Assembly: GCF_006494775.1 (NCBI RefSeq) | Contig: NZ_CP041146.1 | Location: 2,666,001-2,730,000, forward strand | Source: Nocardioides humi | GTDB lineage: Bacteria; Actinomycetota; Actinomycetes; Propionibacteriales; Nocardioidaceae | DNA: 64,000 nucleotides | Direction of reading: 5' to 3' | Part shown: one piece after another, positions 10,203 to 29,337 of the stretch | How the letters are laid out: each line of letters opens with the position of its first letter | Numbering within the stretch: position 1 is the first letter of the stretch | Program-made: the position numbers and the translations under genes | Notes under the pieces: model-generated | Database searches by the model: none | What the model was told of the DNA's origin: nothing | Seen by the model: the letters and a program-made list of their open reading frames with translations, nothing else

Positions 10203-10247
10203 AACGTATTGTCGACAGGCGACTGATAAGTGTCTCGAATTGCGACA
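10203..10247 (-). promoter_or_regulatory. Dual-control promoter of the first ABC importer operon
   Basis: Read on the minus strand, a 17-bp box TGTCGCAATTCGAGACA (10247-10231) is followed by exactly 22 bp and then TACGTT (10208-10203), a good -10 hexamer. The 22-bp spacer holds TTGTCGACAGGCGAC on the plus strand (10209-10223), the island's second palindrome. An activator at the box and a repressor in the spacer would compete at the same promoter. The assignment to particular regulators is inferred. Confidence 0.65.
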
Positions 10248-10303
10248 CCTGCACGCCTGCCGCCGCGTCGACCGCTCTGCCACCATGGGCGCGTCGGCCG
10301 TCC

Positions 10304-10317
10304 GGTCGACAGGCGAC
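10304..10317 (+). promoter_or_regulatory. GTCGACAGGCGAC operator before the CoA-transferase genes
   Basis: GGTCGACAGGCGAC ends 12 bases before the CoA-transferase ATG, inside the leader. The right arm is identical to the sites at 10209 and 29440; the left arm is degenerate. A repressor bound here could block transcription or hide the ribosome site. No clear -35/-10 pair is seen for this gene. Confidence 0.5.
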
Positions 10318-10329
10318 TGAAAGGCAGTC

Positions 10330-11037
10330 ATGGCCGTCCGCATCCACGACGTCTCCGAAGCACTCGACGGGCTTCTCACCGACGGCATGATCATCGCCGC
10401 GGGAGGGTTCGGCCTGTGCGGCATCCCGGCCGATCTCATCGATGGCGTTCATCGATCGGGGGTCAAGGACCTCACGGTCGTCGCCAACAACATGGGCATC
10501 GACGGGAAGGGGCTCGGGCTGCTCCTCGAGTCCGGTCAGGTGCGCAAGGTCATCGCGTCGTACGCCGGGGAGAACCGCGCCTTCGCCGACCTCCACCTGC
10601 GTGGCCGGGTCGAGGTGGAGTTCACACCGCAGGGCACGCTCGCCGAGCGGCTGCGTGCAGGGGGCGCCGGGATCCCTGCCTTCTTCACGCGCACGGGCGT
10701 CGGCACCATCGTGGCGGACGGCAAGCCCCTGGAGGTCTTCGACGGAGTCACCTACCTGCGGGAGTCCGCCATCATCGCCGATCTCGCCTTGGTTCACGCG
10801 CACACCGGTGACGAGCACGGAAACCTGCGCTACCGCCTGACCGCACGCAACTTCAACCCGTTGGTGGCGGCGGCCGGCCGGGTGACGGTCGCGGAGGTCG
10901 AGCACCTCGTCGAAGCCCTCGACCCCGACGACGTCGTGACGCCAAGCATCCACGTCGACCGCTTCGCGCGGTGCACCGAGGGCCGCAAGGAGATCGAGAA
11001 GCTCACGGTCCGCGCGTCCACGGGAGCGGTCCGATGA
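10330..11037 (+). CDS. 3-oxoacid/3-oxoadipate CoA-transferase, subunit A
   Basis: A 235-residue alpha subunit of the class I CoA-transferase family (PcaI/ScoA/AtoD type), with the conserved start MIIAAGGFGLCGIPADLI and the RYRLTARNFNP segment. It pairs with the B subunit whose ATG overlaps its stop. The pair moves CoA from succinyl-CoA or another donor to a 3-oxo or similar carboxylic acid, which suits the lower part of a ring or chain degradation route. GAAAGG lies upstream of the start, and an operator palindrome lies in the leader. The substrate cannot be told from sequence. Confidence 0.88.
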   Translation: MAVRIHDVSEALDGLLTDGMIIAAGGFGLCGIPADLIDGVHRSGVKDLTVVANNMGIDGKGLGLLLESGQVRKVIASYAGENRAFADLHLRGRVEVEFTPQGTLAERLRAGGAGIPAFFTRTGVGTIVADGKPLEVFDGVTYLRESAIIADLALVHAHTGDEHGNLRYRLTARNFNPLVAAAGRVTVAEVEHLVEALDPDDVVTPSIHVDRFARCTEGRKEIEKLTVRASTGAVR

Positions 11038-27822: not shown

Positions 27823-28364
27823 GCCTCGCTCCCACGCTCGGCGCGGATCTCCGCTGCACGCATGGCGGCATCGACGATGAACTGGTAGCCCGTGCAACGA
27901 CAGAGGTTGCTGGAGATGCCCTCCCGCACCTCTTCGCGGGTCGGAGCCGGATTCTCGTCGAGGATCTCCTCGACCCTGAGCATCATGCCGGGGGTGCAGA
28001 ACCCGCACTGCAGGCCCTGCTTCTCCCAGAACGCCTGCTGGACCGGCCCGAGCTCCTCCGGCGAGGTGGCCATCCCTTCGATGGTGCGGATCTCGGCTCC
28101 GTCGACCTGGACGGCCAGGGTGATGCACGAGCGGAGCGTCTGGCCGTCGACCCGCACTGTGCACGCGCCGCAGACGCCTTGATCGCAGGCGGCGTGCGTG
28201 CCGGTGAGCCGCAGATCCTGGCGCAGGACGTCGACCAGCATCCGCCGGCCCTCGACCGCCACGTGCCGCCGCTGACCGTTGACCGTGAGGGTGACGGGAT
28301 ACTGCGTGTCTGGCGTGCTCATCCCCGCACCGACAGGCGTCAGGGGGTCCACGAGTTCGGTCAT
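27819..28364 (-). CDS. Molybdenum hydroxylase [2Fe-2S] small subunit (CoxS-like)
   Basis: A 181-residue iron-sulfur subunit. The plant-type cluster ligands are in CDQGVCGACTV with a following C (LRSC), and the second cluster is in GFCTPGM and NLCRCTGYQ. It passes electrons from the Mo centre to the FAD subunit. GAAGGAG precedes the ATG, and ATGA overlaps join it to both neighbours. The N-terminus is about 18 residues longer than usual; an internal start at MSTPDTQ is possible. Confidence 0.92.
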   Translation of the reverse strand: MTELVDPLTPVGAGMSTPDTQYPVTLTVNGQRRHVAVEGRRMLVDVLRQDLRLTGTHAACDQGVCGACTVRVDGQTLRSCITLAVQVDGAEIRTIEGMATSPEELGPVQQAFWEKQGLQCGFCTPGMMLRVEEILDENPAPTREEVREGISSNLCRCTGYQFIVDAAMRAAEIRAERGSEA

Positions 28365-29284
28365 CGGGGGTCTCCTTCGGTTCGGAACGCCCGGTCCACG
28401 GCTGCTGCCATGGCCAGGCGGGCTTGGGTGCGGGCGACCTTCGTCCGGTAGGACCACGAGGCGACCGAATTGGCCCGGACCGGCACGATGTGCGCGGCCA
28501 CGTCGTTGTCCGGCCGCGGAGCGATGCCCTCGACCACGAGGGCGGCAGCATCGGTCAGGAGGTCCGGCGTCCAGCGTTCGCCCACGAGCGCCTGTTCGGC
28601 GGCCGTGGCCCGGACCGGGCGGTCGCTGATCCCGCACAACGCGACGGCGGCGCGCTCGATCACCCCATCGGCGAAGGCGAGCGCCACCCCCGCACCGGCA
28701 AAGGGGAAGTTGCCGTTGCGGGGGCTCAGCTCACGCCACGCCCACCCGTGCCCGGGCCCCGCCACCGGGAAGCGCACCTCGACGACCAGCTCGTCGGCGC
28801 CGCGGGAGGTTGCGAACGGTCCGATGAAGAACTCGGAGGCGGCCACCGTTCGGCACCCCGCCACACCCTGGACGACGATGTCGGCATCGAGAGCCAGGGC
28901 AACCGCCGGGAGCTCTGCGACCGCCGAGGCGTGCGCGATGCTGCCCACGACAGTGCCGCGGTGCCGGATCGGCGGATGGGCGACGTGGCGCACCGCCTCG
29001 GCAAGGAGCGGAACGGCCTCCGAGACGAGCGGCGACTCCTCTACCGTCGACTGGCGGGTCATCGCGCCGATGACGAGCCGCGCCCCCTCGCGTCGGATGA
29101 AGGCGAGGGTGCCCACGCCCCCGATGTCGATCACGTGCGGCGGAGTCATCAGGCGCAGGTTCATGGACGGAACGAGGCTCTGACCCCCGGCGAGCACGCG
29201 GGCTTCGGGGCCGAGCCCGTCAAGCAACGCTGCAGCGTGCTCCGCGGACGTGGCCCGGTGGTAGGCGAACGGTGCGGGCTTCAT
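28361..29284 (-). CDS. Molybdenum hydroxylase FAD subunit (CoxM-like)
   Basis: A 307-residue FAD-binding subunit with the two flavin motifs of the family: LAGGQSLVPSMNLR and RGTVVGSIAHASAVAELP (the second usually TxGGxxxxAxP). It accepts electrons from the small subunit and passes them to an external acceptor. It heads the M-S-L operon, the same order as in cox clusters. Its promoter carries the 17-bp box. Confidence 0.91.
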   Translation of the reverse strand: MKPAPFAYHRATSAEHAAALLDGLGPEARVLAGGQSLVPSMNLRLMTPPHVIDIGGVGTLAFIRREGARLVIGAMTRQSTVEESPLVSEAVPLLAEAVRHVAHPPIRHRGTVVGSIAHASAVAELPAVALALDADIVVQGVAGCRTVAASEFFIGPFATSRGADELVVEVRFPVAGPGHGWAWRELSPRNGNFPFAGAGVALAFADGVIERAAVALCGISDRPVRATAAEQALVGERWTPDLLTDAAALVVEGIAPRPDNDVAAHIVPVRANSVASWSYRTKVARTQARLAMAAAVDRAFRTEGDPR

Positions 29285-29291
29285 GACGGCG

Positions 29292-29337
29292 AACCTAGGA
29301 CGACCCGGGCCGGCACCGAGTGTTCGACTCTGGGACA
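29292..29337 (-). promoter_or_regulatory. Promoter with activator-type box before the hydroxylase operon
   Basis: On the minus strand TGTCCCAGAGTCGAACA (29337-29321), 23 bp, then TAGGTT (29297-29292). The predicted start of transcription lies within a few bases of the CoxM-like ATG, so the message may be leaderless. Confidence 0.62.

What the first reader, a model, noticed from the sequence alone, without database searches (positions are those of the whole stretch)
10203..29337. A 17-bp palindrome at fixed distance from the -10 box marks seven promoters
Boxes at 10231, 12874, 13480, 16298, 17332, 25183 and 29321, read in the direction of the gene, have the form TGTSnCA..n..GnSACA. Six of the seven are followed at 22 bp (23 bp at 29321) by a TAnnnT hexamer (TACGTT, TAACTT, TAGTTT, TAGCGT, TAGCCT, TAGGTT); the seventh has CACACT. 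The fixed spacing places the box over the -35 region, as for activators that touch the housekeeping RNA polymerase. All seven control pathway genes: importers, hydroxylase, XdhC, SDRs, LLM enzyme. I read the motif and spacing directly; the activator identity is inferred.
Basis: partly seen in the sequence, partly recalled or inferred. Interest (0 to 1): 0.85.

Follow-up and report, generated by a model that had tools for sequence, protein, structure and literature searches.

The report
Shared switch site for degradation genes
Seven promoters of a bacterial degradation island carry the same short DNA switch at a nearly fixed place, and the same switch turns up beside related regulator genes in other actinobacteria, which points to regulators descended from sigma-54 activators that now seem to work with the ordinary RNA polymerase.

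Summary
TAnnnT follows at 22 bp (five) or 23 bp (one); the seventh has CACACT at 22. In the 6.22-Mb genome 9 places match the box with up to one mismatch, 5 of them in this island.

The genome has no match to the RpoN DNA-binding model, and none of 79 related loci shows a GAFTGA string.

Beside homologs in other actinobacteria the box recurs (57 places, control 1); TAnnnT lies 20-23 bp after 30 of the 57, against 5 hits at the other 40 offsets. Box letters track the recognition helix. A published Rhodococcus prmA start puts the matching box at -43.

Against: over 394 class genomes, regulator ignored, the exact box+hexamer is no commoner than its control (7 versus 8); 29 of 76 loci with a homolog show no box; the window's regulator gene is frame-shifted. 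Binding and activation are untested. A second, GntR-type operator works on the same island.

The parts
10231..10247 (-). Box 1, TGTCGCAATTCGAGACA; TACGTT hexamer at 10203-10208; promoter of a Peripla_BP_4 importer gene (called ORF 9051-10439; its true start must lie downstream of the hexamer)
   Evidence: Pfam
12874..12890 (-). Box 2, TGTGCCAAGGTGCCACA; CACACT at 12846-12851, then 6 nt to an ATG (apparent leaderless start of XdhC, called ORF 11685-12881)
   Evidence: Pfam
13480..13496 (+). Box 3, TGTCCCAGGATGACGCA; TAACTT at 13519-13524; promoter of SDR gene 13577-14425
   Evidence: Pfam
16298..16314 (-). Box 4, TGTCACAAACTGGCACA; TAGTTT at 16270-16275; promoter of SnoaL-like (15781-16182) and mycofactocin-type SDR (14941-15774)
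   Evidence: box with 22-bp spacing before the same pair in four Pseudonocardia loci
17332..17348 (-). Box 5, TGTCGGCATTTGAGACA; TAGCGT at 17304-17309; promoter of F420-type LLM enzyme gene (within 16427-17302)
25183..25199 (-). Box 6, TGTGTCACATTGCGACA; TAGCCT at 25155-25160; promoter of second importer (23871-25034, 22834-23862, 21301-22773)
   Evidence: Pfam
29321..29337 (-). Box 7, TGTCCCAGAGTCGAACA; TAGGTT at 29292-29297 (spacer 23), then 7 nt to ATG (apparent leaderless FAD subunit of the molybdenum hydroxylase, called ORF 28361-29461)
   Evidence: box and hexamer-7nt-start kept in L073, L074, L076
19412..20560 (-). Regulator, C-terminal part: degenerate AAA+ and Fis-type HTH (HTH_8), recognition helix GISRSSLYRK
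19738..21219 (-). Regulator, N-terminal part: GAF-containing half in another reading frame (frame-shifted relative to relatives; uninterrupted relatives exist)
31367..32101 (-). GntR/FCD regulator, second regulator of the island
   Evidence: 52-54% identical neighbours in L073-L076
10303..10317 (-). Putative GntR operator GTCGCCTGTCGACCG before the CoA-transferase genes (10330 +)
10209..10223 (-). Putative GntR operator (1 mismatch) lying between box 1 and its -10 hexamer
21198..21217 (.). Putative GntR operator, near-symmetric, upstream of the regulator gene
29438..29452 (-). Putative GntR operator just after a TTGACA-N17-TACCTT promoter (29408-29436, +) of the M24 gene (called ORF 29320-30630; true start must lie downstream)
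33220..33239 (.). Putative GntR operator upstream of a lipocalin-like gene (32713-33180 -)

Best explanation
The box is the operator of the island's own GAF / degenerate-AAA+ / Fis-HTH regulator, a descendant of sigma-54 activators that has lost the sigma-54-contacting loop. The regulator, presumably after its GAF domain binds a pathway compound, sits as a dimer on the box from about -51 to -35 (centre about -43) and helps the housekeeping RNA polymerase at promoters that have a TAnnnT -10 but no good -35, as a class II activator does. Shown by sequence: the box, the spacing, its link to this regulator family in other genomes, the helix-box match, absence of an RpoN match and of GAFTGA. Inferred: binding, dimer, ligand, activation and the sigma factor.
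For: Enrichment in the island at strict thresholds. No Sigma54_DBD match in the genome, while 4 of 14 control genomes ring. Homologs: 12-protein alignment without GAFTGA and, by eye, without a usual Walker B; 0 of 79 loci with a GAFTGA-like string. Box near homologs: 57 places in 50 actinobacterial loci (534,667 bp) versus 1 control; second sample, 11 boxes in 9 of 26 loci versus 0. TAnnnT at 20-23 bp after 30 of 57 boxes versus 5 hits at the other 40 offsets; second sample 6 of 11 boxes, 2 hits at other offsets. Homologous island in four Pseudonocardia loci with boxes before the orthologous SnoaL-SDR pair (4 of 4) and hydroxylase genes (3 of 4). Pseudonocardia genomes, box + N22 + YANNNT, <=2 mismatches, rows in the island stretch of all rows (control): P. 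dioxanivorans 12 of 17 (5), G293 10 of 18 (8), G294 9 of 19 (10), G295 10 of 19 (10). Helix-box match: 23 of 23 boxes at MSRA[TS]IYRK loci are T/T at position 5, 26 of 33 at ISRSSLYRK loci are C/C. External anchor: prmA start mapped by primer extension in Rhodococcus BCP1 (PMC4428276, passages and section 16); the same promoter in R. aetherivorans DSM 44752 has the box centre at -43, and the divergent regulator there has the helix foretold from its box. Predicted fold: nearest solved structures are the E. coli DhaR N-terminal part (TM by query 0.27) and bEBP AAA+ domains (pLDDT 78.8, pTM 0.43).
Against: Regulator ignored, the exact box+hexamer is no commoner than its control over 394 class genomes: 7 rows versus 8, or 5 versus 8 without the own genome; of the 7, four lie near a homolog (G000 twice, G377, G115 at about 9 kb) and three do not (none found in about 20 kb around them in G326 and G646). 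29 of 76 loci with a homolog show no box with <=1 mismatch, though most of these loci hold only about 1.5 kb on each side; L079 and L080 hold 10 kb and still have none. Only 10 of 33 ISRSSLYRK-class boxes have TAnnnT at 20-23 bp. The window's own boxes vary at position 5 and do not follow the C/C tendency of their helix class. A prm-like locus in G655 has a T/T box (2 mismatches) but no regulator homolog in the 6.2 kb fetched. The paralogous box at G000:3238863 has no TAnnnT at 20-23 bp. The window's regulator gene is frame-shifted. Helix classes were drawn after seeing the data, and loci share ancestry.
Confidence: 0.8

Rival explanations
1. The same regulator binds the box but as a repressor, blocking RNA polymerase at the -35 region until the substrate releases it.
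For: The box covers the -35 region, where repressors also sit.
Against: The promoters have no good -35 element (best match <=3 of 6 in six, 4 of 6 in one), as expected if they depend on help; where TAnnnT is found its distance is held within 20-23 bp over distant genomes, tighter than a repressor needs. In Rhodococcus BCP1 the operon with the matching box is induced by n-butane (PMC4428276, passages), which does not tell activation from relief of repression.
Confidence: 0.12
2. The island's GntR/FCD regulator binds the 17-bp box.
For: It is encoded in the island and conserved with it in four Pseudonocardia loci.
Against: A relative of the GntR protein lies in 4 of 76 loci examined (many loci hold only about 1.5 kb on each side), while the box is in 47 of 76; a different motif, GTCGCCTGTCGACNG, has its four exact genome matches in this island and fits a GntR operator better.
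Confidence: 0.03
3. The box is a site of a global CRP/GlxR-like or Fis-like protein, as was proposed for palindromes at prmA in Rhodococcus.
For: Some boxes resemble TGTGA..TCACA (CRP consensus recalled); the BCP1 paper proposed CRP-like and Fis-like sites at prmA (PMC4428276, passages and section 16).
Against: A global site would be spread over the chromosome: here 5 of 9 near matches lie in 19 kb, and in P. dioxanivorans 12 of 17 rows in 27 kb. The box letters follow the helix of the neighbouring regulator.
Confidence: 0.04
4. Chance palindromes in GC-rich intergenic DNA.
For: At loose thresholds or without the regulator the counts do not exceed the controls (24 versus 29; 7 versus 8).
Against: Strict-threshold enrichment, conservation before orthologous genes, spacing peak.
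Confidence: 0.01

Closest known systems
DhaR of E. coli (sigma-70-dependent relative of sigma-54 activators)
   Same: AAA+-like middle and Fis-type HTH; best-scoring NCBIfam model for the homolog P0002 (101.6 bits) and top PDB match of its model (4lrx, DhaR N-terminal part with DhaK); loss of the GAFTGA element and sigma-70 dependence are stated for DhaR in PMC3162934 (passages).
   Different: Far below the DhaR equivalog cut-off (101.6 versus 551 bits); no dihydroxyacetone kinase among the island genes given Pfam names; actinobacterial host; different genes controlled.
Fis-family regulator of prmABCD in Rhodococcus (and, recalled, MimR of mycobacterial mimABCD)
   Same: Homologous regulator encoded divergently to the operon, TGTCTCA-type box with centre at -43 from the published start.
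   Different: Helix class MSRATIYRK with T/T box and 21 bp spacing, against ISRSSLYRK and 22 bp here; controls a monooxygenase. The BCP1 paper (passages and section 16) reads the palindrome as Fis-like at one promoter; it states no family-wide rule in the parts I saw. MimR: a database name (P0115); its genetics are recalled.
TyrR, HupR, VpsR (sigma-54-activator relatives working without sigma-54)
   Same: Same descent and altered GAFTGA (PMC3162934 passages); VpsR is among the fold matches.
   Different: Different sensor domains and operators, and proteobacterial hosts (recalled).
AcoR-like proteins of actinobacteria (annotation)
   Same: Many of the 120 listed homologs carry names such as transcriptional regulator of acetoin/glycerol metabolism or sigma-54-dependent Fis family regulator; AcoR-like genes lie beside monooxygenase clusters in M. 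chubuense (PMC8784404 passages).
   Different: AcoR of B. subtilis is sigma-54 dependent (recalled); the proteins here lack GAFTGA.

Membership tests
Sigma-54 activator (bacterial enhancer-binding protein) | GAFTGA loop | tested here: not met
   Absent in the 12-protein alignment and in 0 of 79 loci plus P0001, P0002, P0007
Sigma-54 activator (bacterial enhancer-binding protein) | RpoN in the genome | tested here: not met
   No PF04552 match in G000; 4 of 14 control genomes ring
Sigma-54 activator (bacterial enhancer-binding protein) | AAA+ domain and Fis-type HTH by descent | tested here: met
   HTH_8, AAA_lid_14, Sigma54_activ_2 matches; fold matches
DhaR (equivalog) | NCBIfam NF008485 cut-off | tested here: not met
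   101.6 bits against 551
DhaR-like sigma-70-dependent bEBP relative (mode of action) | Activates the housekeeping holoenzyme in vitro or in vivo | not testable with these tools
   Only promoter geometry was seen
Class II activator promoter | Site next to or over -35, centre near -41 to -44 (values recalled), with -10 but poor -35 | tested here: met
   Seven window promoters; 30 of 57 boxes elsewhere at 20-23 bp; -43 at prmA with the published start
Class II activator promoter | Transcription starts 6-8 bp after the hexamer | tested here: inconclusive
   No starts mapped in the window; two apparent leaderless start codons lie 6 and 7 nt after the hexamer, the latter kept in three Pseudonocardia loci
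GntR/FCD operator | Short palindrome of TGTCGACA type near GntR-linked genes | tested here: inconclusive
   Motif and location only; binding not tested

The most novel reading that the evidence does not exclude
Actinobacteria, which lack sigma-54, carry a whole family of former sigma-54 activators that have become class II activators of housekeeping promoters, with one shared operator plan (TGTnnCA-N3-TGnnACA), a box-to--10 distance of 20-21 or 22 bp, and a readable match between recognition helix and box (MSRA[TS]IYRK with T/T and 20-21 bp, ISRSSLYRK mostly with C/C and 22 bp). This would let many unassigned catabolic regulons be read straight from sequence.
Probability: 0.65. Interest if true: 0.72.

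Novelty: new variant of a known kind. Interest (0 to 1): 0.64.

Why it matters
Annotation calls these proteins sigma-54-dependent regulators in bacteria that have no sigma-54 (names; PMC3162934 passages). The box, its place and its match to the helix say how they probably work instead, and give a way to predict the targets of regulators that sit beside monooxygenase and other catabolic clusters, and to choose promoters for biosensors built on them.

Tried and rejected
Mistyped patterns: an 18-position box (1 match against 3.99 expected; 0 matches) missed the sites; the 17-position pattern replaced it. The exact pattern over 394 class genomes gave no excess, so the motif alone is not diagnostic without the regulator. 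Loci of the other homologs (59 of 80, not actinobacterial by record title, about 1.0 Mb) gave 8 versus 4 control places: no clear signal. A first HTH search string missed most helices and was replaced by an alignment. Rhodococcus L079 and L080 have homologs without a box; not explained. Boxes elsewhere in the own genome at 72473 and 1753098 were not followed; 684108 lies about 8 kb from an HTH_8 match of 24 bits, with nothing more found. smoA promoter of BCP1: no box with <=2 mismatches in L203. The prm-like locus of G655 (L211) has a T/T box with two mismatches and no regulator homolog in the DNA fetched. Close orthologs (77-86%) were found only among database proteins, not in 292 other genomes of the order at E <= 1e-30, where the identities listed for other genomes were 34% or less. 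A prior description of this operator rule was sought in eight paper searches (open-licence library only); nothing in the listings or passages I saw states it, but most subscription papers, the MimR paper among them, could not be searched. The pathway substrate was not identified.

Control notes: the reversed-pattern control keeps base make-up but not dinucleotides. The own-genome loci L172, L188, L193 were dropped before the count, and L039-L041. Genus g9 of the order sample and Pseudonocardia weigh heavily. The protein search listed 120 of 603 hits; two searches gave loci only for part of their matches.
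Full report
The seven boxes exist as described. Read in the direction of the gene, they fit TGTSNCA-N3-TGNSACA with no mismatch (12874, 16298, 25183), one (10231, 13480) or two (17332, 29321), and a hexamer follows at 22 bp in six and 23 bp in one; six hexamers are TAnnnT and one is CACACT. No promoter has a good -35: the best match to TTGACA at spacers 15-19 is 3 of 6 or less in six and 4 of 6 in one. 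In the island 5 boxes with at most one mismatch compare with a simulated mean of 0.075. In the whole 6.22-Mb genome there are 9 such places, 5 in the island, with a control count of 5. The 6 rows of box + N22 + TANNNT with at most one mismatch (5 boxes) are all in the island, although at three mismatches the total (24) no longer exceeds its control (29).

The genes behind the boxes are two importers with sugar-type binding proteins, XdhC, a molybdenum hydroxylase (FAD and Mo subunits), two SDR units (one with a SnoaL-like gene; that SDR is of the mycofactocin type) and an F420-type LLM enzyme. In two cases a start codon lies 6 or 7 nt after the hexamer (XdhC, hydroxylase FAD subunit), as in leaderless transcripts; the 7-nt distance for the FAD subunit is kept in three Pseudonocardia loci. 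The odd hexamer CACACT of XdhC gains some credit from its start codon; C-initial hexamers (CAGCGT, CAGCCT) also stand at the hydroxylase promoter in those three loci.

The island encodes two regulators. One is GAF / AAA+ / Fis-HTH. Its two halves lie in different frames in this window, while uninterrupted relatives of 586-587 aa exist in the databases, so the break may be a sequencing error or a real loss. The middle domain has no GAFTGA; no GAFTGA-like string was found in the regulator of any of 79 related loci, and the genome has no match to the RpoN DNA-binding domain. The best-scoring curated model is DhaR, well below its cut-off, and the model of the homolog P0002 is nearest to DhaR's N-terminal part and to bEBP AAA+ domains. 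DhaR, TyrR and HupR are given as sigma-70-dependent relatives, and Actinobacteria as lacking sigma-54, in PMC3162934 (passages seen).

The link between box and regulator was tested in other genomes. Around homologs in 50 actinobacterial loci the box occurs at 57 places with at most one mismatch, against 1 for the reversed pattern. In a second sample, 26 loci from 20 other genomes among 394 of the class, there were 11 against 0, in 9 of the 26 loci. TAnnnT follows at 20-23 bp in 30 of the 57 (5 hits at the other 40 offsets) and in 6 of the 11 (2 hits at other offsets). Four Pseudonocardia loci hold a homologous island, with boxes before the same SnoaL-SDR pair (spacing 22, four of four) and before the hydroxylase gene (three of four). 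In the four Pseudonocardia genomes the box + N22 + YANNNT with up to two mismatches gives, as rows within the island stretch of all rows (control rows): P. dioxanivorans CB1190 12 of 17 (5), within 27 kb; G293 10 of 18 (8); G294 9 of 19 (10); G295 10 of 19 (10). Some rows are one box read on both strands; in P. dioxanivorans the 12 rows are 10 boxes.

The box letters go with the recognition helix. In loci whose regulator has MSRA[TS]IYRK, 23 of 23 boxes have T at position 5 of both halves; in ISRSSLYRK loci 26 of 33 are C/C; in the rest 12 boxes are mixed. Counted from the rows, TAnnnT stands at 20 or 21 bp in 20 of 21 MSRA loci that have one (23 bp in the other), and at 22 bp in all 10 ISRSSLYRK boxes that have one (10 of 33 boxes of that class). 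In a shuffle of labels over the 47 loci with a box none of 20,000 reached the observed agreement (45 of 47), but the classes were drawn after seeing the data and shared ancestry makes that figure too strong. The window belongs to the ISRSSLYRK class and has its 22-bp spacing, yet its boxes vary at position 5, so the letter code is not complete.

An outside anchor exists. Cappelletti et al. 2015 (PMC4428276; passages and section 16 read) mapped the prmA start in Rhodococcus BCP1 to a C 55 bp before the start codon, 7 bp after a TTGTAT, with a palindrome over the -35 region and a Fis-family regulator gene read the other way. In R. aetherivorans DSM 44752 (handle G652, reached from L081) the same promoter reads CGTCTCACATTGAGACA, 21 bp, TTGTAT, 7 bp, C, then 55 bases to TTG; the box centre is at -43 from that C. 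From the T/T box I expected the neighbouring regulator to have the MSRA-type helix, wrote that down, and found GMSRATIYRK. That the DSM 44752 start equals the BCP1 start is an assumption from identical hexamers and distance. A prm-like locus in G655 has a T/T box with two mismatches but no regulator homolog in the 6.2 kb fetched, and the smoA promoter has no box.

Against these stands: over 394 class genomes the exact box+hexamer gives 7 rows against 8 for the control (5 against 8 without the own genome). Four of the 7 are near a regulator homolog; three are not. The motif is thus informative next to a regulator of this family and weak by itself. Also, 29 of 76 loci with a homolog show no box in the DNA held.

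A second circuit overlaps the first. The motif GTCGCCTGTCGACNG has four exact matches in the genome, all in this island (10 rows against 4 control rows with up to one mismatch): before the CoA-transferase genes, the regulator gene, the M24-HpcH genes (just after TTGACA-N17-TACCTT) and a lipocalin-like gene; a fifth, with one mismatch, lies between box 1 and its -10. Similar sites lie at the M24 promoters and near the GntR gene in Pseudonocardia. The simplest reading is a GntR repressor that holds back the regulator and entry genes, and the box-binding activator that then drives the rest; this is inference.

Verdict: observation confirmed; interpretation supported and widened to a family rule; a new variant of a known kind (sigma-54-activator relatives that work with the housekeeping polymerase). 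Open: direct binding, direction of regulation, ligand, and whether the window's regulator gene is intact in the living strain.

Noticed in passing
window 10209, 10303, 21198, 29438, 33220: Second operator motif GTCGCCTGTCGACNG, exact four times in the genome and only in this island; likely the GntR/FCD regulator's sites, one near match lying between box 1 and its -10.
   Followed up: partly
window 19412-21219: The GAF-AAA-HTH regulator is split over two frames, while uninterrupted relatives (77-86% identical over the C-terminal part) and an uninterrupted database protein, P0001, identical over that part exist.
   Followed up: partly
G000:C1:3238863-3238900 (L039 6864 and 6885): Two tandem boxes 21 bp apart (0 and 2 mismatches) near the start of a paralogous importer cluster, about 5.6 kb from another Fis-HTH regulator; no TAnnnT at 20-23 bp.
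   Followed up: partly
G296:C1:2395717-2422289 (P. dioxanivorans CB1190): The Pseudonocardia box cluster extends beyond the fetched locus, with further boxes at 2412625, 2413587, 2421252 and 2422245.
   Followed up: no
window 36001-52000: G+C of 0.59-0.64 in 4-kb steps against 0.67-0.73 around it; possibly a separate foreign segment right of the island.
   Followed up: no
L079, L080: Rhodococcus regulator homologs with the ISRSSLYRK helix but no box with <=1 mismatch within 10 kb.
   Followed up: no
window 25375-28551: The first 260 or so residues of the called Mo-subunit frame match no Pfam domain; the true start may lie further in.
   Followed up: no
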